From: a virus
Direction: 5' to 3' (one strand)
Length of the DNA stretch: 24,369 bases
IMG/VR virus record: IMGVR_UViG_3300035698_011943
Coordinates: 1-24,369 of that record
The position numbers were made by a program, and so were the translations under genes. The notes beneath the pieces are model-generated. The model worked only from the letters and a program-made list of their open reading frames with translations. It searched no databases and was not told where the DNA came from. Positions 1,205-14,874 of the stretch are shown here, in pieces (within the stretch, counting starts at the first letter, position 1; every line of letters begins with the position of its first letter).

Positions 1205-1242
1205 TTTTATAACTCTTTCATTTATATATTTTATAAACCAAG

Positions 1243-1339
1243 CAGGCCGTGAAGGAGTCGAACCCTCGGGGACAATGGTTGGAATATCATCCGCAGATTT
1301 GAAGTCTGCCCCAAGTACCGTAGCTTGGTCCAACGACCT
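1243..1339 (-). tRNA. UCA-anticodon tRNA with long variable region (UGA-reading)
   Basis: The acceptor stem AGGTCGT/ACGGCCT forms 7 pairs with one G-U. The anticodon stem GCAGA/TCTGC is perfect around the loop CTTCAAA, giving anticodon UCA. The T arm is GAGGG-TTCGACT-CCTTC. The variable region is about 25 bases rather than about 5, and the D arm (CCAAG/CTTGG) is set back by 4 bases, for a total of 97 bases. No CCA is encoded. The ends A1-U72, G2-C71, G3-C70 and G73 are those of bacterial tRNA-Trp, which suits TGA read as Trp. The long variable region recalls tRNA-Sec or tRNA-Ser, and an automatic call of SeC(TCA) is likely. The amino-acid identity is inferred, not shown. Confidence 0.8.
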
Positions 1340-1417
1340 ATTTATTAATTTCTTCTTTCAAATAACATTTATAATATAACTCATATACTTTTAATATGCA
1401 AATGTTTTATTATTTTG

Positions 1418-1488
1418 AGCAGGATAAAGAAATCGAATCCTCATATGATGCGTACAAAACACCGGTTCTACCATTGAACTAATCCTGC
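1418..1488 (-). tRNA. tRNA-Thr (UGU)
   Basis: The acceptor GCAGGAT/ATCCTGC is perfect, the D arm is GTTC/GAAC, and the anticodon arm GGTGT-TTTGTAC-GCATC gives anticodon UGU (codon ACA). The T stem GAGGA/TCTTT contains two G-U pairs. No CCA is encoded. ACA is an A-ending codon that suits this AT-rich genome. Confidence 0.85.
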
Positions 1489-1508
1489 TTATTTCAAATA
1501 ACATTTAG

Positions 1509-1584
1509 TCGAGAAATCCAGATTCGAACTGGAATACACTGATTTCCAAAACCAGTTCTTTAGGCCAAATTAAGATATTTCTCG
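1509..1584 (-). tRNA. tRNA-Pro (UGG)
   Basis: The acceptor CGAGAAA/TTTCTCG is perfect, and the anticodon arm CTGGT-TTTGGAA-ATCAG gives UGG (codon CCA). The T arm is TCCAG-TTCGAAT-CTGGA and the discriminator base is A. The 3' end is followed by CTA, so CCA is not encoded. Confidence 0.85.
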
Positions 1585-1595
1585 ATTTTTAATTG

Positions 1596-1666
1596 TGCAT
1601 CTTTCTTGAATCGAACAAGAATCCCTCGGGCTTCAACCGAATGCTCTTCCATTGGGCTAAAGATGC
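1596..1666 (-). tRNA. tRNA-Phe (GAA)
   Basis: The acceptor GCATCTT/AAGATGC and T stem TCTTG/CAAGA are perfect. The anticodon arm TTCGG-TTGAAGC-CCGAG gives GAA. The discriminator is A and is followed by CAA rather than CCA. Confidence 0.85.
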
Positions 1667-1672
1667 ATTTTG

Positions 1673-1746
1673 TACTCCTTCTCAGAATCGAACTGAGAAA
1701 CACAGACTTTTGAGGACTGCCGCTTTGCCAATTAGCGTAAAGAAGT
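1673..1746 (-). tRNA. tRNA with CAA anticodon (Leu-type, short variable loop)
   Basis: The acceptor ACTTCTT/AAGGAGT has one wobble pair. The D arm is CGCT/AGCG and the T arm CTCAG-TTCGATT-CTGAG. The anticodon loop CTCAAAA gives CAA (codon TTG). The anticodon stem CAGTC/GTCTG has one T-T mismatch. The variable loop has about 5 bases, whereas bacterial tRNA-Leu normally has a long variable arm, so the Leu assignment rests on the anticodon alone. The T arm and variable loop closely resemble those of the neighbouring UAA tRNA, suggesting duplication. Confidence 0.7.
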
Positions 1747-1758
1747 ATTTTTAAATAG

Positions 1759-1831
1759 TAGCCCTTCTGAGATTCGAACTCAGAAACACAAGATTTTAAA
1801 TCTTGCTGCTTTTCCGTTAGCATAAAGAGCC
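1759..1831 (-). tRNA. tRNA with UAA anticodon (Leu-type, short variable loop)
   Basis: The acceptor GGCTCTT/AAGGGCT pairs with two wobbles. The anticodon stem CAAGA/TCTTG is perfect around TTTAAAA, giving UAA (codon TTA, the main Leu codon here). The T arm is CTGAG-TTCGAAT-CTCAG and the discriminator A. The variable loop is short, unlike normal bacterial tRNA-Leu. CCA is not encoded. Confidence 0.75.
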
Positions 1832-1866
1832 ATCATTTCATTATTTTATCAATTTTCAAAAAACAT

Positions 1867-1953
1867 TGGTGCAACGAGGAAGATTTGAACTTCCAATTGT
1901 CCGAAGACTGCGGTTTTACAGACCGCCTGCTTATCCAGTTTGCATACCGTTAC
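1867..1953 (-). tRNA. tRNA-Tyr (GUA)
   Basis: The acceptor is GTAACGG/TCGTTGC, and the anticodon arm GCGGT-CTGTAAA-ACCGC gives GUA. It has a normal long variable arm with a GTCTTCGGAC hairpin, as expected for bacterial tRNA-Tyr. The T loop is TTCAAAT. It is the only tRNA of the seven with an encoded CCA end. It comes first in the cluster in the direction of transcription. Confidence 0.9.
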
Positions 1954-2315: not shown

Positions 2316-2810
2316 ATGAAAAAAATTAAAAGAATAATTATACACCATAGTGCAAGTGAATGAGGAAATGCTTTTACTATTGATAAATGACATAAAGAAA
2401 AAGGATGATCAGGAATTGGATATCATTGAATTATAAATAATGGATATACTAATTATTCTGATTATAAAAATAATAGAAAATTTTATGAATTAATTGGTTC
2501 AATCGAATGTGGTAGAACTTTAGATGCTGATGAATGAATACAAGCAAATGAAAAAGGTGCTCATGCTTATGGATATAATATAGATAATTATTATATATGT
2601 TTTATTCATAAAAATGGTAAATATCATAATTTAATGTTATTTAAATTATTTAGTTTTTTAGTTGAATTAATTATAAAATTTAATATTGATATTGATAATA
2701 TAGTTGGACATTGTGAATTGGATTCAAAAAAACCAGAATGCCCTTCAATTGATATGGAAAAATTAAGAAATGATTTAAAAAATCATTTTGAAGAAATTGA
2801 TATAGAATAA
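2316..2810 (+). CDS. N-acetylmuramoyl-L-alanine amidase (endolysin)
   Basis: This 164-residue single-domain Amidase_2/PGRP-type enzyme would cut the amide bond between MurNAc and L-Ala in peptidoglycan and so lyse the host. Seen in the sequence: IIIHHSAS (H10/H11, first zinc ligand), GWSGIGYHW at 30-38, GAHAYGYN at 81-88, and VGHCELD with H132 followed by PECPS with C142 as the remaining zinc ligands. No signal peptide is present, so release should need a holin, and none is visible here. All five Trp codons are TGA, so with the standard code the protein would stop at residue 15. It is the first gene of the plus-strand block and follows a candidate late promoter. Confidence 0.92.
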
Positions 2811-2830
2811 AATATAGAGGAAATAATAAA

Positions 2831-3148
2831 ATGAAAATCGAAGAAAAACAATTAAGAGAAATAATTAGAGAAGAAATTCAAAAATTGAATGAATCAGGTA
2901 AAGCCGATACATTATTAAAATTATTAAATAACTTAACTACAGATGGTAAAGGGTTTAAAAAAGATAAATTTAAAGATGGTAGAGAAAAAATCATAGGTGG
3001 AGAATTATCATTAGATAAAAATGAAAATCCATTATTTAATTACCATAATGACAAAATTGATCCAAAAGTAGAAAAAATATTAAAAAAATATAATTGAGAC
3101 TATGAATGAGAAGATTCGGGCACAATAGTTTTTTATAAAGAATTTTAA
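2831..3148 (+). CDS. Putative capsid-targeted protein with QLRxII N-terminal tag
   Basis: A 105-residue protein with ribosome site GAGGAAA before its ATG. Residues 7-21 (QLREIIREEIQKLNE) form an amphipathic helix ending in L-N-E before Ser22. The same tag recurs in proteins at 10384, 11328 and 14638, and L-x-E matches the cleavage site of T4 gp21-type prohead proteases. After the tag the protein is Lys/Asp-rich and unrecognised. Two TGA codons near the C-terminus read as Trp (NWDYEWED). I infer packaging into the prohead and tag removal; the mature role is unknown. Confidence 0.75.
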
Positions 3149-3169: not shown

Positions 3170-3628
3170 ATGAGAAATAATTCAAACTTAGACCCATCAA
3201 AAACTTCTTGAGATTATATTAAAAAAGCAAACGAACAAAAAATATTTATTACTGTTCCAACTCAAAATGAAGATGGTAAATGAGTTGATAAATCATTATT
3301 ACCAAGTTGACATAGACATTCGGTTGGTACCGCTTTTGTTGATTCAGAAACAATGGTTTGATATAGAAGAACAAAAGATGGAAGAAAAGAAATGGAAAAA
3401 GATGATCCATTAAATAATCCAGTAACTCCTTTATTTTGTCCTAAATGTGGTAACATAATGAAAAGAGGAGATTTAGATACAAAAGCAATGTTACATACTG
3501 GTGGTTGTTTTATTTGTCATATAAACGAAAAAGCAGAAACAAATGAAAAAGCAAATATTCATGAATTTAAAAGAAAACTCAAAATAATTAAAGAACAAAT
3601 GGATAAAGAAAAAGAACAACAAATATAA
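3170..3628 (+). CDS. Zinc-ribbon protein upstream of terminase
   Basis: A 152-residue protein with ribosome site GAGG 5 bases before the ATG. The N-terminal half is Trp-rich (four Trp, all TGA). The middle holds a zinc ribbon, FCPKCG followed about 25 residues later by CFIC. The C-terminus is a charged helix (residues about 120-152, Lys/Glu-rich). Its stop overlaps the terminase start by one base (TAATG), so the two are probably translated together. It occupies the position of the small terminase gene, but I see no gp16-like features, so that role is only a positional guess. Confidence 0.75.
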
Positions 3629-4242
3629 TGTCCGAACAAATCCAAAATATTGAATTAACTGAAGATCAAGAACTAAAACAAACAATTTTTAGAGAAATTG
3701 CAAAATGCTCTAAAAGTTATGAATATTGTTTATTAAAATATGGTAAAATTCCAATACCAGGTAAAGGTAATATGCCTTTTATATTAAGAGAATATCAAAA
3801 AAAATGTTTAAAAGTATTTGAAGATAAAGAAGATGTTATAATTTTAAAATCTCGACAATTAGGATTATCAACCTTAGTTGCTGGATTTATTGCTTGTGGA
3901 ATGATTTTTGAAGAAAATTATAATGCTTTAGTAATTGCAACAAAAAAAACAACAGCAATAAATTTAGTTAAAAAAGTTAAAGTTGCATTGAATAAATTTC
4001 CATCATGATTAATGACTGAAAAAATTAGAAAAGATAATGAAATGTCGGTTGAATTAACTAATGGTAGTTTTGTAAAAGCGGTTCCAAGTTCTGGAGATGC
4101 TGGAAGGTCTGAATCTCTATCCTTACTTGTTTTAGATGAATGTTTAACTTATGACAATAAAATAAAAATAAAAAATAAAAACACTGGTGAAATAAAAGAA
4201 GTTAATATTGGAGAATTGTATTTAAATAACTATTACAAATAA
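3628..4242 (+). CDS. 17: Terminase large subunit, N-terminal half fused to split-intein N fragment
   Basis: A 204-residue protein. Residues 1-171 are the N-terminal ATPase part of a T4 gp17-like DNA-packaging motor: KSRQLGLST at 74-82 is the Walker A-like loop (SRQLG as in T4 gp17) and SLLVLDE at 165-171 is Walker B with the catalytic Glu. Immediately after that Glu, Cys172 starts CLTYDNKIKI, a textbook intein block A. The frame ends 33 residues later at TAA. The rest of the intein and the terminase lie in the gene at 5767. Protein splicing in trans should join E171 to a Cys and give a normal-length terminase of about 556 residues. Residue 128 is a TGA-coded Trp. Confidence 0.9.
4141..4239 (+). 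other. Split intein N fragment (IntN, block A only)
   Basis: 33 residues from Cys172 to the stop. CLTYDNKI is the conserved N-terminal splice block with the nucleophilic Cys. A typical split intein has an IntN near 100 residues that also holds block B; here block B lies in the C fragment. This is therefore an atypically early split. The insertion is directly after the catalytic Glu of Walker B. Confidence 0.88.
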
Positions 4243-4270
4243 GTTAAATGTTTCTGTTTTTTTACCATTT

Positions 4271-4287
4271 AAAAATATTTATTATTG
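4271..4287 (+). promoter_or_regulatory. Candidate late-promoter motif (copy 2)
   Basis: AAAAATATTTATTATTG lies in the 72-base gap between the terminase N half and the endonuclease gene, 27 bases before the endonuclease ATG. It resembles the copies at 2275, 9163 and 20201. Its presence would let the endonuclease and the terminase C half be transcribed separately from the N half. Confidence 0.35.
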
Positions 4288-4314
4288 TAAATAGTAATTT
4301 AAAAAAGATAAAAT

Positions 4315-5766
4315 ATGATAAATTCAAATAGATTAAAATGTGAAATATGTAATAAAAAATTTACAACTGGAAGCAGTCAAACAAAACATTTAAAAAAATA
4401 CCATCCAGAAATATCATTTGAAGAATATTATACTAAGTTTATGATGAAACCAAATGAAAATAAATGTATAATATGTAATAATAAAATTGAATTTAAAGAT
4501 TTATCTTTTGGATTTAAAAAAACATGTTCGAAAAAATGTGAAAATATATATAAAATGCAAAAAACTAAAGAATCTTTATTAAAAAAATATGGAGTTATAA
4601 ATGTAAGTCAATTAAAAAGTGTTCAAAAAAAGAAAAAAGAAAATAGTTTAAAAAAATATGGGTTTGAATCTCCATCCCAATCTGATATTGTTAAAAATAA
4701 AATGAAAAAAACAAATTTAGAAAAATATGGTGTTGAATATTCATTACAATCAAAAGAAGTTAGAGAAAAAATAAAAAATACTTGTAAAGAAAAATATGAA
4801 GTTGAATATATAACACAAGCAAAAGAAATTAAAGAAAAAATTAAACAAACTTGTTTAAAAAAATATGGTGTTGAATATTCATTACAATCAAAAGAAGTTA
4901 GAGAAAAAATAAAAAATACTTGTAAAGAAAAATATGGTGGTATAGGTTTAGGTTCTGGTGAAATTAAAGAAAAAATAAAAAATACAATGATTAAAAAATA
5001 TGGTAAAGATAATCCCGCAAAAGTAAAAGAAATTAGAAAAAAAATAGAAAATACTTGTAAAGAAAAATATGGAACAAAATGTGTTTTACAAGACAAAAAA
5101 CACAATATGAAATTATTTGGTTATGAAGATATAAATAAAGTTCCAGAAATAAAAGAAAAAATAAAAACATCTAGATTAAATTCATTACAACGAACACATG
5201 GTAAACATTTAAAAAATTATTCACAAACAAAAGAATGAAAAGAAAAGATTAAAAATACTTGAAACGATAAAACAAAAGAAGAATTAAAAGAAATTAGTAA
5301 TAAAATAAAACAAACAAAATTAAAACTATATGGAAATGAAAATTATAATAATATAGAAAAAGGAACAAAAACAATATTTATTAAATATGGTGAATATGCA
5401 AAATATTGTCCAAATTTTTCTTTAAATTCACAAAAATTATTTGAATCTTTAACTAATAAATTAAAAGAAACTCATAAAAATATTGAATGTTTTTATGCTA
5501 TAAATGGTAAAGATAAAAAAACAAATGAATATAGAGTTTTAACAAAAAAATCAATAAAATATTTAGATTTTTATATACCACAATTAAATAAATGAATTGA
5601 ATTTGATGAATCTTTTCATGAAAAACAAATTAAAAAAGATAATGAAAGAACATTATTAATTAAAGAAAGTATTAAAAATATTGAATTATTAAGAATAAAA
5701 GAAAAAGATTTTTTAAATAATCCAGATTTAATTTTAAATAAATGTTTAAACTTTATTGGAAAATAA
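4315..5766 (+). CDS. Free-standing homing endonuclease (Vsr-like) inside the split intein locus
   Basis: A 483-residue protein between the two terminase-intein genes. Domains: a C2H2-type zinc finger (C9, C12, H25, H30), a second Cys cluster (CIIC and CSKKC, about 50-80), then about eight repeats of some 23 residues of the form KYGVxxxxQSxEVREKIKNT (about 85-310), a DNA-binding module seen in phage homing enzymes. The C-terminus has D418, then WIEFDESFH (E429, D431, H435) and D442, the E-D-x-H-D arrangement of very-short-patch-repair-like endonucleases associated with fractured-gene split inteins. It probably cuts intein-less terminase genes to spread the intein. Three in-frame TGA codons read as Trp. 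The stop abuts the next ATG with no gap. Confidence 0.85.
4721..4936 (+). repeat. 78-base direct repeat inside the endonuclease gene
   Basis: Bases 4721-4798 and 4859-4936 appear identical over 78 positions with a spacing of 138 bases (46 codons). The repeat encodes EKYGVEYSLQSKEV and the following helix. It reflects recent duplication of two KYG modules in the coding sequence and is not a CRISPR or mobile-element end. Confidence 0.85.
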
Positions 5767-6105
5767 ATGATTAATAAATATCAGAATAAAAAACAAATAA
5801 ATGAATGAGAAGTATTGACTCCAGATGGATGAAGTGACTTTGATGGTATTAAAGAAACATCTTCAAACAAAATTATTAAATTTTCATTTAATGATAAAAC
5901 TTATTTAAAATGTACTAATACACATAAAATAAAAATTTTAAATGGAACATTTAAAGAAGCAAATAAATTAAAAATTAATGATTTATTATTTAATAATATT
6001 TCTATACAAAAAATTGAAATTATAAATATTCAACAAAAAGTTTATGATTTATTAAATGTAAAAATGAAAAACCAATATTTTAGTAATAAAATTATTAATC
6101 ATAAT
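5767..6105 (+). other. Split intein C fragment (IntC, blocks B, F and G)
   Basis: 113 residues. CTNTHKIKI is block B with the T-x-x-H pair, VYDLLNVKMKNQYFSNKI is block F, and IINHN followed by Cys is block G with the cyclising Asn. There is no endonuclease domain inside; the endonuclease is the separate gene just upstream. Together with the 33-residue N fragment it makes a mini-intein of about 146 residues. Confidence 0.88.
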
Positions 6106-7263
6106 TGTGCCCACATTAAAGGAATTGATAAAATTTGAACTGGAGCATCAGAAACATTATCTGAATCTGGTGGACAAACAATTGTAATTTCTACACCAAA
6201 CGGTGTTGGTAATTGGTATCATAAAAAATGAACAGATGCCGATGAAGGTTTAAATAATTTTTATCCAATTAGATTAGATTGGTGGGTACATCCAGATAGA
6301 GATGAAGCATGAAAAGCAGAAAGAATTAAAGCATCATCCGAACGAGAATTTGAACAGGAACATGGTTGTTCATTCTTAGCAACAGGAAACACTTTAATAA
6401 AAGGTTGAAAAATAAAAGAACTTATTGATAAAACTGAAGATCCTATTTTAAAATCAAAAGATGAATTGACTTGATTTTGAAAATTACCAGAAAAAAATAA
6501 ACATTATATGATTGCTGCTGATACTGCTGATGGTGGTGATGATGGTGATTTTAGTGCTTGTCATGTAATTGAATTAGAAAATTGTGAACAAGTTGCTGAA
6601 TTTAAAGGGCATATGAATCCTAAGAAATTTGGTGAATTATTATTAGAATTAGCAAAAGATTATAATGAAGCATTATTAGTAATAGAAAGAAACAATTTAG
6701 GTCCGGCTGTAATTCAACCAGTTATGGATGCTTTTTATGAAAATTTATTTTTTAGTAAAAGAGGTTCGTTAGATTTTGTTGATCCAAATATAAATAATGG
6801 AACACTTGAAAATGATTTAGATAAAACTAAAGGAAATGTAAAACCTGGTTTTATAACAACAATGAAAACAAGACCATTAGTAATTCAAAAAATAGATGAT
6901 TTTATTACTGAAGATTTAGTAATTATTAAATCAAAAAGATTAACAACCGAATTATTAACATTTATAAATATTAATGGAAAATATCAAGCAATGAGTAGTT
7001 ATCACGATGATTTAGTAATATCATTTGGTATAGCTTTATTTATTAGAGATACAGCAATTAAATTAAGAAAAATAATAAATGATTTAGATAATACACGATT
7101 AGATTTAATTTTAGAAAAAAATCAATCATTTCATAACAAAAAAAATAGTAAAGCAAAAAAAAATGATTTTAATATAATTTATACAAATTCAAATACAGAA
7201 GATCCATATACACAAAGATATGGTAAATATTTTAATTTTGATATGAAAGAACTTTTAAATTAG
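5767..7263 (+). CDS. 17: Split-intein C fragment fused to terminase large subunit C-terminal part
   Basis: A 498-residue protein. Residues 1-113 are the intein C fragment, ending in KIINHN. Cys114 begins the C-extein CAHIKGIDKIW, which continues the ATPase after Walker B. The following STPNGVGNWYHKKW is the coupling region. From about residue 245 comes the RNase H-type nuclease with MIAADTADGG (Asp ligand), LVIERNNLG (Glu) and SYHDDLVIS (Asp), as in T4 gp17, which cuts the DNA concatemer. Trp codons mix TGA with three TGG. It needs the N half at 3628 to be active. It ends 15 bases before the portal gene. Confidence 0.92.
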
Positions 7264-7278
7264 TATAAAAGGAATATA

Positions 7279-9081
7279 ATGAATAAAAAAGATATTGAAA
7301 CTAAAAAGGGAACAGTTAATCCAGAAAACGTTTTTGATAATTTAAAAAAATTATTTAAAGTAGATAATGCGTTAACTTATATTAATCATAAAAAAATTAA
7401 TATTGACCAGATTGGTAATAAAAATAAAGAATATGAAACTAATCTTGATAGAAATTATGGTGGTATTTATACAAATAATCAAAAAATGAGTGAAAACCAA
7501 AATCTTCAATCTATTAATAGAAGATTACGTTATAGAGATTATGAAACTATGGATATGGATAGTATAGTTGCTTCAGCATTGGATATTTATGCTGAAGAAA
7601 GTACCTTAAAATCTAATGAAGGTTTAGTTGTTTCAATAAAATCAGAAAAAAAAGAAATAAAAGAAGAAATAGAAAAACTATTTTTTAATATTTTGAATAT
7701 CGAATTTAATGCATTTCCATGAATTAGAAATTTATGTAAGTATGGTGATTTCTTTTTAATATTAGAAATTTCTCCTGGATTAGGAATTACTAATGCATAT
7801 CCATTTTCAGTATATGAATTAGAACGTGAAGAACAAAAAATTACTGAAGGTGAACGTCAAGGAAAAAAGAAAATAGTATTCAGATTAACTGGTGCAAATA
7901 GTTATTTAAAAAATAATTTATCAAATTATGAAGTTATTCATTTTAGATTATTAAGTGATACAAATTATTTACCATATGGAAAAAGTATTATTGAAAGTGG
8001 TAGAAGAACTTGAAAACAATTAAAATTAATGGAAGATGCAATGATGGTTTACAGAATCATGAGAGCACCTGAAAGAAGAATTTTTTATGTTAATGTAGGT
8101 AATTTACCAGTTCAAAATATTGATGCTTGGATGGAAAAATTTACAAATAGAATTAAAAAAGAACAAATTATTGATAGATCAACTGGTGAATTAGATTTAA
8201 AATATAATGTTCAAAATACACTTGAAGATTTCTTTTTTCCAGTAAGAGGAAACGAATCATCAACCAGAGTAGAAACATTACCCGGTGGTGCTAATATGGA
8301 TAAAATAGAAGATATTGAATATCTTTTAAGTAAATGATTCAGTAGTGTAAAAATTCCAAAATCATATTTACAATACGAAGAAGATATGAATGGAAAAGCA
8401 AATTTAGCATTAGAAGATATTAGATTTGCCCGTTCAGTTGAAAGAGTTCAAAAAACCATTGAATCAGAATTTAGAAAATTAGCATTGATTCATCTTTATT
8501 CTACCGGCAAATTTAATGATGAAGAATTATTAGATTTTGATATTGAGTTAACTCATTCATCAAATTTAAGAGAACAACAAGAAATGGAAATCATGACTAA
8601 AAAAATTGATTTAGTTAATGCTGCCAAAGATAATAAAATTTTACCAACTGAATATTTTTATAAAACATTGTTTAGATTTTCTGATGAAGAAATTGTTCAA
8701 ATAAGAAAACAATTAATGGAAGATTCTAAATGAGAATGAATTATGGAAGAATTAAAATCTAATGGAATTTATGAAGAACCAACATTAGATGATATTAATG
8801 ATAATGATGAAGAAAATGAAGAAAACGATTCAAATGATAATGAAGATAATAATGATAAAGAAAAAGATTTAAAAGATAAAGAACGAGAAAAAGAAAAAGA
8901 TTTAAAAGATAAAAAAAATGAACGTGATAAAGAATCAAAAGATAAAGATAAAGAAAATAAAGAATTATCAAAACAAGGTACAGAGTTTGATCCTAAAAGA
9001 ATAGTAGGAAACAAACCCAGTATTAATGCTCACAATGATTTAGGAATAATTTTAAAGAGTTTAAAAACAAAAAAGAATTAA
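7279..9081 (+). CDS. 20: Portal vertex protein (T4 gp20-like)
   Basis: A 600-residue protein forming the dodecameric portal through which DNA is packaged and to which the tail attaches. Family features: LRYRDYETMDMDSIVASALDIYAEE near residues 90-115, a compact central domain with FRLLSDTNYLPYGKS (about 220-235), then MRAPERRIFYVNVGNLP (about 260-276), SKWFSSVKIPKSYL and the long helix with SVERVQKTIE. The last about 110 residues are very acidic then Lys/Asp/Glu-repeated, with unusual low complexity. Trp is mostly TGA. At the 3' end the dnaX-type slippery heptamer A-AAA-AAG is followed by 25 more sense codons in the -1 frame, described separately. It follows the terminase gene directly. Confidence 0.92.
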
Positions 9082-10383: not shown

Positions 10384-11325
10384 ATGGAATCACAAGAAAA
10401 ACAATTAAGAAAAATTATTAGAGAAAAAATTCAAAGATTGAATGAAGGTATAGAAGATTCTGGTATTTTTAAGGCTATATTTTTAGCAGGAGGTCCTGGT
10501 AGTGGTAAAACTTATGTTGTAAAACAATTATTTGGCATTCCAGAAAAATTAAATATATCAACATTTGGATTAAAATTAGTCGGTTCTGATACAGAATTGG
10601 AATCATTATTAAAAAAATATTTTGATACTGTTGATATGGATAATATGCCTGTAGATTTATTTAAACAATTAACAGATCCATCATCTAAAGATTATAGTGG
10701 ATTAAGAACATATGCAAAAGAATTAACTGCCCAAAGACTAAAAAATTATACAATTGGTAGATTGGGTGTTATTATTGATGGTACTGGACATAAAATAGAT
10801 GCAATTAAAAAACAACAGAAAGAATTAATATCACTTGGATATGATACATACATGATTTTTGTTAATACATCATTAGAAACATCATTAGAAAGAAATAATT
10901 CCAGACAAAGAAAATTACCAAACGATATAGTAACTGATTCGTGAAATTTAGTTCAAAAAAATATGTTAAATTTAAAAAAATTATTTGGAAATAAAAATTT
11001 TTTATTAGTTGATAATAATGAACATTTAAATCAAAACCAATCAGATAAAAAATTCAATAACTTGGTTAATAAAGGGCTTATGCAATTTTTAAAAAAACCA
11101 ATTAAAAATAAAACTGCTTTAGATTGAATTGAAAAACAAAAAATATTAAAAAATCGTGGAAATAAAATGAAAGAATCATCAGAAAAACAATTAAGAGAAA
11201 TTATAAAAAAATTAATAGATGAAATAACAACAACAAGTGCAACTCCTGGTTATGATTCAAAATATGCTTTTAAAGATTCTCCATTAAGTGGTAGTGCTAA
11301 TATGTTACAAAATAAGGAAAAATAA
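10384..11325 (+). CDS. P-loop kinase (zeta-toxin/PNK-like) with N-terminal capsid-targeting tag
   Basis: A 313-residue protein. Residues 7-21 (QLRKIIREKIQRLNE before Gly22) are the shared tag with a gp21-type L-x-E site. AIFLAGGPGSGKTYVV (31-46) is a Walker A loop; later VIIDGTGHK, LGYDTYMIFVNTSLE and NNSRQRKLP resemble zeta-toxin-like kinases, with the Arg-rich lid. The likely chemistry is phosphate transfer from ATP; the substrate is unknown. After about residue 245 comes a second tag-like helix SEKQLREIIKKLIDE followed by ITTTSATPGYDSKYAF. An internal in-frame ATG at 11167 could start a separate 53-residue protein, so this may be a fusion of two genes. If packaged in the head, the kinase would be delivered with the DNA. 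Confidence 0.8.
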
Positions 11326-11327
11326 AA

Positions 11328-11627
11328 ATGAAAATTAAAGAAATACAATTAAGACAAATAATAAAAGAAGAAATTCAATGATTAAATGAATCTGATGATA
11401 TTTTTAATAAAATTGGAGAACTTGCCAAGAACAAAGTATTACTAGATATGAGGCCGGATCTTGCAAAGATTTTTGGTAAGAAAAATGTTGATTTTGCATT
11501 CTCACCAGTATCACATTTCAGAATAAATTATAAAGGAAAAATAATTATCATTGTTAATAAAAAATATGCAGATAATGCTGAATTAATTGTTGGTACTACG
11601 GCCATTGGATATGAAGGAAAAATATAA
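11328..11627 (+). CDS. Putative capsid-targeted protein, C-terminus possibly frameshifted
   Basis: A 99-residue protein starting 2 bases after the previous stop. Residues 7-21 (QLRQIIKEEIQWLNE before Ser22) are the tag with an L-N-E cleavage site; the Trp in it is TGA. The remainder (residues 22-99) has a beta-rich second half (FRINYKGKIIIIVNKKYA) and no recognised domain. Several codons (GCC, CTT, AGG, CCG) are less AT-rich than its neighbours. In the -1 frame the coding continues as KKLINEMTTTSA, matching the C-terminal motif of the kinase gene just upstream, so the present stop may be an error or a shift site. Confidence 0.72.
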
Positions 11628-11686: not shown

Positions 11687-12217
11687 ATGGCAAAAATTAA
11701 TATATTAAAATATAAACAAGTAGGAAAACTTAATAAATATGATATTCAATCAGTTTGATTTGAAGATAAATTAGTTGGATTTAAATATATGGGTAAGTTA
11801 ATAATGGCTAAAAATCTTGAAGATAAAGTTCCATATTTAAAAGGAATAAAAGGTGATAAGAAATATTTTATAAAATCATATATTTTAGATCCAAAGATGT
11901 CAAAACCTATGAAATGATATAATAAATATGAATTAAAAAAAGATGAATCATTAGAACAACTTAGACAAATTATTAAAGAAGAAATATTTTTAATATTAAA
12001 TGAAAAATTAGAAATTGGTGATAAAATTAAAATAATATATAGTGGTATTCATAAAAATGATCAAATGTCTAAATATTTTCATGGAAAAACTGGTACATTA
12101 AGATCAAAAGAAGGAAAACAATGAAATGTTAGATTAGATAAATCAGTCAATATTCCAGGTACTGGTGAAGTTAAATCTGATTCTTGAGATACTACCTTTA
12201 TTAAAAGAATAAAATAA
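11687..12217 (+). CDS. Two-part protein with internal tag-like helix and SH3-like C-terminus
   Basis: A 176-residue protein with ribosome site AAGGA upstream of the ATG. Residues 1-85 are unrecognised. Residues 91-106 (QLRQIIKEEIFLILNE) copy the capsid-targeting tag found at the N-terminus of neighbouring proteins, here in the middle. The following LEIGDKIKIIYSGI, GKTGTLRSKEGKQWNVRLD looks like a small KOW/SH3-type beta barrel. The layout suggests fusion of an upstream gene with a tagged gene; cleavage after LNE would release a barrel of about 70 residues. Five Trp codons, all TGA. Confidence 0.75.
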
Positions 12218-14438: not shown

Positions 14439-14633
14439 ATGAAAAAAATAGTTCCACCAATGATAACAGTTAAACAAAATGAATCGATTGAAAAAATGTT
14501 AAAACGTTTTAAAAAAATGGTTAAAAAATCTAAAATTTTACAAGATTATAAATTACATACTCATTATGAAAAGCCTTCAGAAAAAAGAAAAAGAAAAGAA
14601 TGTTTATATAAATCAAAATACAAAAAAGGATAA
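14439..14633 (+). CDS. rpsU: Ribosomal protein bS21 homolog
   Basis: A 64-residue basic protein with AAAGGATAATC before its ATG. TVKQNESIEKMLKRFKKMV aligns with the bS21 pattern (V-x-E-N-E-x2-x2-A-L-R-R-F-K-R), HYEKPSEKRKRKE with its YEKPTxERKR block, and the C-terminus is Lys-rich. bS21 sits on the 30S subunit next to the anti-Shine-Dalgarno end of 16S rRNA and affects initiation, and phage-borne copies are known. It lies between the prohead protease and a tagged protein, so it is probably made late and may favour phage mRNAs. Confidence 0.85.
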   Translation: MKKIVPPMITVKQNESIEKMLKRFKKMVKKSKILQDYKLHTHYEKPSEKRKRKECLYKSKYKKG

Positions 14634-14637
14634 AAAA

Positions 14638-14874
14638 ATGAAAATTAATGAAACACAATTAAGAAAAATGATTAAAGAAGAATTAGATAAATTGAACGAA
14701 GTATACATGACACCAGAAAAACTTGGATTAGAAATCGATATGGCATTACAAAATTTAGGTGATGCAATTAAAAACGTAAAAGACCCTAGAGCATATGGTG
14801 AAAAATATTTTAGATCAGCAGAAGGATTATTAAAAACACTTTTAAATTTAACAAAAATTGTAACAAAAATGTAA
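14638..14874 (+). CDS. Putative capsid-targeted protein with QLRxMI tag
   Basis: A 78-residue protein. ATG 14638 lies 4 bases after the bS21 stop, with AAAAAGGATAAAAAA as ribosome site. Residues 7-21 (QLRKMIKEELDKLNE before Val22) are the shared tag. The mature part MTPEKLGLEIDMALQNLGDA, then ARAYGEKYFRSAE-like helices, is a small all-helical domain that I do not recognise. It is the last plus-strand gene before a convergent junction: its stop is only 5 bases from the stop of the minus-strand recombination gene, and no terminator hairpin is visible there. Confidence 0.75.
   Translation: MKINETQLRKMIKEELDKLNEVYMTPEKLGLEIDMALQNLGDAIKNVKDPRAYGEKYFRSAEGLLKTLLNLTKIVTKM

What the first reader, a model, noticed from the sequence alone, without database searches (positions are those of the whole stretch)
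4141..6105. Fractured terminase: split intein with a 33-residue N fragment and a Vsr-like endonuclease gene between the halves
The terminase is broken right after its Walker B Glu. CLTYDNKI starts the intein in one gene; blocks B, F and G end in IINHN-Cys in another gene 1.5 kb away; an endonuclease with D418/E429/D431/H435/D442 sits between them. Fractured genes with split inteins and Vsr-like (EDxHD) enzymes are known. Here the split falls just after block A, leaving block B on the C side, which is the rare atypical split class. The combination of atypical split, terminase active site and intervening endonuclease in a TGA-recoded phage is unusual and would give a natural trans-splicing pair with a very short N part.
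Basis: partly seen in the sequence, partly recalled or inferred. Interest (0 to 1): 0.85.

Follow-up and report, generated by a model that had tools for sequence, protein, structure and literature searches.

The report
Phage packaging gene with split intein
A phage's DNA-packaging motor gene is broken in two by an endonuclease gene, and each half carries part of a self-splicing protein element (a split intein) that should rejoin the halves after translation; this is a clean new example of an arrangement already known from other T4-like phages, not a new kind of system.

Summary
TerL is broken directly after the Walker B Asp-Glu. The 5' gene ends in a 33-residue intein N fragment; the 3' gene starts with a 113-residue C fragment ending HN|C. 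A 483-codon endonuclease-like gene lies between. All three need TGA=Trp. The fragments score 35.5 and 92.2 bits against profiles built without them (best of 2000 shuffles: 12.0 and 14.5). Joining the exteins gives a 556-residue TerL collinear with intein-less terminases.

Best explanation: a fractured gene with an atypically split, AceL/GOS-TerL-type intein that splices in trans. The nearest solved structure is Cat, the engineered consensus of that class (30/104 residues; here 33/113). Relatives occur in 83 phage records, mostly Campylobacter and T4-like phages; the T4-like ones examined share the TerL site, so "rare" is overstated.

Contiguous versions exist at the window's own site. Splicing and endonuclease activity are untested.

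The parts
3628..4140 (+). N-extein: first 171 residues of TerL, ending ...LLVLDE at the Walker B motif
   Evidence: PHROG 5989 terminase 1.5e-34; aligns to T4 gp17 structures, 3.6e-15
4141..4239 (+). IntN, 33 residues CLTYDNKIKIKNKNTGEIKEVNIGELYLNNYYK, block A with Cys1; stop TAA 4240-4242
   Evidence: 35.5 bits against HMM of other IntNs, best of 2000 shuffles 12.0
4243..4314 (+). Spacer with several in-frame stops; no stable fold, terminator or known RNA family
4315..5766 (+). Endonuclease-like protein, 483 aa: zinc-finger-like N end, DUF7487 repeats, C-terminal Vsr-like (EDxHD-type) domain with D418/E429/D431/H435/D442 (codons 5566-5640)
   Evidence: PF24308 5.9e-37, PF21598 8.4e-6; PHROG 3339 homing endonuclease 3.5e-33; 19.2 bits to a Vsr-like profile built without it
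5767..6105 (+). IntC, 113 residues, with block B TNTH (5914-5925), block F and block G ending His-Asn (6100-6105)
   Evidence: 92.2 bits, best of 2000 shuffles 14.5; Cat intein 6dsl 4.6e-8; fold match 6dsl 4.7e-8
6106..7260 (+). C-extein: last 385 residues of TerL starting Cys+1 (CAHIKG...), rest of the ATPase and the nuclease domain
   Evidence: PHROG 2 terminase 2.1e-21; fold match to T4 gp17, 6.3e-17
6196..6201 (+). Empty second insertion site (ISTP/NGVGNW), occupied by the intein in relatives L016 and L048

Best explanation
This is a fractured TerL gene. TerL-N with IntN, and IntC with TerL-C, are translated as two proteins. The 33-residue IntN docks into the 113-residue IntC and completes one HINT fold. 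Class-1 splicing then follows (Cys1 acyl shift, transfer to Cys+1, Asn113 cyclisation) and yields a seamless 556-residue terminase, ...LLVLDE-CAHIKG.... The gene between encodes a Vsr-like (EDxHD-type) homing endonuclease whose DUF7487 repeats probably form a DNA-binding array; it would cut intein-less terL alleles and so spread the insertion. Shown here: the anatomy, the homology, intact catalytic residues, collinearity of the joined exteins, recurrence of the arrangement, and relatives that keep the split intein without the endonuclease. Inferred: trans-splicing, endonuclease activity and its target, and that splicing is needed for packaging.
For: Profile scores far above shuffles for both halves. 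Nearest solved relative is the atypical split intein Cat, by sequence and by fold of the predicted IntC. Gap-free junction of the joined exteins with intein-less TerL. Same site and split in T4-like isolates and in L049, L053 and L060, with nuclease genes between. L060 has the same endonuclease architecture at the same site. The Vsr-like profile finds I-Bth0305I 3r3p at 1.2e-6. Fragment sizes 33/113 match GOS-TerL 37/115, AceL-TerL 25/104 and Cat-TerL 30/104 (PMC11766414).
Against: No splicing or cleavage data. The window's endonuclease domain is divergent (19.2 bits) and its predicted structure is unusable. The host and the rest of the genome are unknown, so an intact second terL elsewhere cannot be excluded.
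Confidence: 0.9

Rival explanations
1. RNA splicing: a group I or group II intron, not an intein, carries the endonuclease gene and is removed from the transcript.
For: Phage ICP1 terL is RNA-spliced (PMC10448857), and in Campylobacter phage IBB_35 part of the terL insertion was described as an intron (PMC3322345).
Against: No intron family in the window at Rfam gathering scores and none in 3600-7300 at permissive thresholds; both intein halves are conserved protein sequence with catalytic residues.
Confidence: 0.03
2. Gene in pieces without splicing: the two TerL proteins assemble non-covalently, as described for the NrdA halves separated by mobE in a T-even-like phage (named from memory and from a citation in PMC3322345).
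For: Both halves have their own start codons and the intein N half is short.
Against: All splicing residues are kept, and the break lies inside the ATPase core right after the catalytic Glu, where two unjoined chains are unlikely to work.
Confidence: 0.04
3. Artefact or decay: a mis-assembly, or a terminase pseudogene in decline.
For: A single metagenomic contig of 24 kb; contiguous inteins exist at the same site.
Against: The same layout is found in many independent isolates and contigs; both exteins are full-length and collinear; a relative with the same code is also split.
Confidence: 0.03

Closest known systems
AceL-TerL, GOS-TerL and the engineered consensus Cat-TerL (atypically split inteins)
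   Same: Same gene, split between blocks A and B, short IntN (25-37 aa) and IntC of 104-115 aa, Cys+1; Cat is the top structural and sequence match
   Different: New sequence (IntC about 31% identical to Cat in the fold match); in-frame TGA codons; Cys1 as in AceL and unlike Ser1 of GOS-TerL
Split TerL inteins of T4-like phages (PD112, PspYZU05, phiR1-RT, JK32, Thanatos-2)
   Same: Same insertion site DE|C and same split position; nuclease gene between the halves, or fused to IntN in JK32 and Thanatos-2
   Different: In PD112 the nuclease is of another family (TnsA-like), and the intein is only about 36% identical
Fractured genes with EDxHD homing endonucleases (Dassa et al. 2009; type structure I-Bth0305I, 3r3p)
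   Same: Broken gene, split intein halves, separate Vsr-like endonuclease gene between them; the domain profile finds 3r3p at 1.2e-6. Dassa 2009 is known here from citations and memory only
   Different: Endonuclease here has a long DUF7487 repeat array and a zinc-finger-like N end; activity unproven
L016 and L048 (IMG/VR contigs with in-frame TGA)
   Same: Closest inteins by identity (65% and 53%), same split position, in-frame TGA read as Trp
   Different: Inserted 31 residues further downstream (STP|C); L016 has only an endonuclease remnant and L048 none

Membership tests
Atypically split TerL intein (AceL/GOS/Cat class) | Both halves homologous to known TerL split inteins | tested here: met
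Atypically split TerL intein (AceL/GOS/Cat class) | Split between blocks A and B, IntN of 25-37 residues | tested here: met
   33-residue IntN with block A only; blocks B, F and G in IntC (sizes)
Atypically split TerL intein (AceL/GOS/Cat class) | Catalytic residues Cys/Ser1, block B TxxH, penultimate His, terminal Asn, Cys+1 | tested here: met
   C at 4141, TNTH at 5914-5925, HN at 6100-6105, C at 6106
Atypically split TerL intein (AceL/GOS/Cat class) | Splices in trans | not testable with these tools
   Needs co-expression
Fractured gene with homing endonuclease | Endonuclease gene between two halves whose products together make one protein | tested here: met
EDxHD (Vsr-like) homing endonuclease | Domain homologous to I-Bth0305I / Vsr-like nucleases | tested here: inconclusive
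   Profile that includes the window hits 3r3p at 1.2e-6; the window's own domain scores 19.2 bits to a profile built without it, best shuffle 9.9; single-sequence PDB search found only zinc fingers; model unusable
EDxHD (Vsr-like) homing endonuclease | Site-specific cleavage of the intein-less allele | not testable with these tools
   Needs purified enzyme
Group I/II intron in terL | Conserved intron RNA core in the insertion | tested here: not met
   No Rfam intron match in 3600-7300 even at E<=5

The most novel reading that the evidence does not exclude
The split intein has moved between two non-allelic sites of the same essential gene among close relatives: Walker B (DE|C) in the window, motif III (STP|C) 31 residues downstream in L016 and L048, with the other site empty in both the window and L016. 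The split state then outlived its endonuclease, which is a remnant in L016 and absent in L048. If so, split inteins can relocate within a gene and persist as free-standing trans-splicing pairs.
Probability: 0.35. Interest if true: 0.55.

Novelty: new member of a known kind. Interest (0 to 1): 0.33.

Why it matters
It adds a well-formed natural trans-splicing pair with a 33-residue N part, of practical use for protein labelling. Together with its relatives it gives a comparative series in one gene (no intein, contiguous intein, intein split by an endonuclease gene, split intein with the endonuclease lost) on which the origin of natural split inteins can be tested. It also shows the terminase ATPase site as a recurrent target with several insertion points.

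Tried and rejected
RNA intron: no Rfam match. Structured spacer or terminator: none. Relatives of TerL-N and of the nuclease C-domain alone in viral contigs: none by pattern scan. TerL relatives in bacterial genomes: none in one scan, so the host stays unknown. Pfam Intein_splicing over the whole record: no match at E<=0.001, and 22.8 bits against a cut-off of 35.8 for IntC alone; standard models miss these short diverged halves. Site switching: window and L016 inteins pair with 84-90 bootstrap and 75-77 SH-aLRT, but a single clade of all Walker B inteins is not rejected (AU p=0.16), so it stays a suggestion. Dassa 2009, Stevens 2018 and Bachmann 2015 are not held in the library; what is said of Dassa rests on citations and memory.

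Full report
WHAT IS THERE. Read with TGA=Trp, three consecutive + strand ORFs make up the locus: TerL-N with IntN (3628-4242, 204 aa), an endonuclease-like protein (4315-5766, 483 aa), and IntC with TerL-C (5767-7263, 498 aa). The code is justified: TGA columns face Trp in table-11 terminase and portal homologs as often (39 of 80) as TGG columns do (13 of 28). The intein begins at the Cys codon at 4141 and resumes at 5767, ending at His-Asn (6100-6105) before Cys (6106).

IS IT REAL. HMMs were built from intein halves of other phages only, without the window and L016. The window's 33-residue IntN scores 35.5 bits and IntC 92.2 bits; among 2000 shuffles of each the maxima were 12.0 and 14.5. 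IntC finds Cat, the engineered consensus of the atypical TerL split inteins, in the PDB (6dsl: 4.6e-8 by single sequence, 1.4e-21 by profile). An AlphaFold model of the 3' protein has a fairly confident beta-rich intein part, and its best intein match is again 6dsl (E 4.7e-8, TM-score 0.75 by target length), next to T4 and RB49 gp17. The joined exteins, 556 residues, align through the junction without a gap to the intein-less TerL of Flavobacterium phage immuto and of contig L017. TerL-N aligns with T4 gp17 up to its Walker B DEC, so the break lies immediately after the catalytic Glu.

HOW IT MOST LIKELY WORKS. The residues needed for class-1 splicing are present (Cys1, TNTH, HN, Cys+1), so protein trans-splicing to a seamless terminase is the most likely function; this is inferred, not shown. 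The intervening protein has DUF7487 repeats (5.9e-37) and homing-endonuclease PHROG matches, and a C-terminal Vsr-like domain. A profile of nine related domains from viral contigs scores the window's domain at 19.2 bits (best of 2000 shuffles 9.9). The profile that includes the window finds I-Bth0305I, the EDxHD type structure, at 1.2e-6. EDxHD membership is therefore likely, but the window's domain is divergent and its model is unusable. That the endonuclease spreads the insertion by homing is inferred from the known behaviour of such enzymes.

CONTEXT. Related IntC sequences occur in 83 phage records and in 17 viral-contig loci, one of them L016 again. At the same DE|C site, split forms are seen in T4-like isolates and in L049, L053 and L060. 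In PD112, PspYZU05 and phiR1-RT a nuclease gene lies between the halves; in JK32 and Thanatos-2 it is fused to IntN. Contiguous mini-inteins at this site exist in Nitratidesulfovibrio phage SRB7757, Campylobacter phage CP21, L051 and L055. The protein between the halves varies: DUF7487 plus a Vsr-like domain in L060 (the window's type), a TnsA-like nuclease in PD112 and L049, and a NUMOD3 protein in L056, whose intein sits at another TerL site. The position between blocks A and B thus looks like the entry point of different endonuclease genes into one intein family. Published relatives are GOS-TerL (37/115), AceL-TerL (25/104) and Cat-TerL (30/104) (PMC11766414), the terL intein of Salmonella phage Maynard (PMC3868846), and IBB_35, whose authors described an intein plus an intron in terL (PMC3322345).

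THE CLOSE RELATIVES. L016 (63% identity in the best segment, in-frame TGA) carries its split intein at ISTP|C, 31 residues downstream. Its Walker B site reads VIDEAAHIGN and is empty, while the window's ISTPNGVGNW site is empty. Between L016's halves only about 100 nt remain, whose ends read like the start and the end of a similar endonuclease gene. L048 (in-frame TGA, 22% GC) has the same second site and no endonuclease gene. By identity the window's intein is closer to L016 (65%) and L048 (53%) than to the same-site inteins of L049 (46%) or L060 (41%). Tree support for a site switch is moderate, and a single clade of all Walker B inteins is not rejected (AU p=0.16).

VERDICT. Rarity was overstated: this is a further member of the fractured terL / atypical split intein kind. 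The informative part is the comparative series around it.

Noticed in passing
window 1242-1953 (-): Cluster of seven tRNA genes, one (1242-1339) with anticodon UCA and a selenocysteine-tRNA-like shape (RF01852 38.2 bits, gathering 47). A UCA anticodon would read the recoded UGA, yet it does not look like tRNA-Trp.
   Followed up: partly
L016 1738-3975; L017 7281-10415: Portal protein genes of both relatives carry contiguous inteins; the window's portal (7279-9081) has the L016 site empty (MNGKANLALEDI).
   Followed up: no
L014 (Campylobacter phage CP21) and L007 (IBB_35): CP21 terL appears to hold three inteins: contiguous near Walker A, split at FRGFS|C, contiguous at DE|C. In near relative IBB_35 the DE|C intein is interrupted by a MobE-like gene, a candidate contiguous-to-split pair.
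   Followed up: partly
window 2711-3148, 10384-11325, 11328-11627, 11687-12217, 14566-14874: Several otherwise unlike small proteins share a motif like EKQLRxIIREEIxxLNE; it also occurs in L016 ORFs. Possibly a sorting tag such as a capsid-targeting sequence (guess).
   Followed up: no
window 3628, 4315, 5767: TerL-N, endonuclease and TerL-C all start in the same reading frame, separated by stops, as if from one continuous ORF; this is not so in L060, so it may be chance.
   Followed up: partly
L010, L011, L012, L050, L056 and others: TerL of diverse phages holds related inteins at several further sites (before SFRGS/SFLGS in Vibrio phages, before LIIDEM in L050, at LLY|C in L056), so the gene is a recurrent intein target.
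   Followed up: partly
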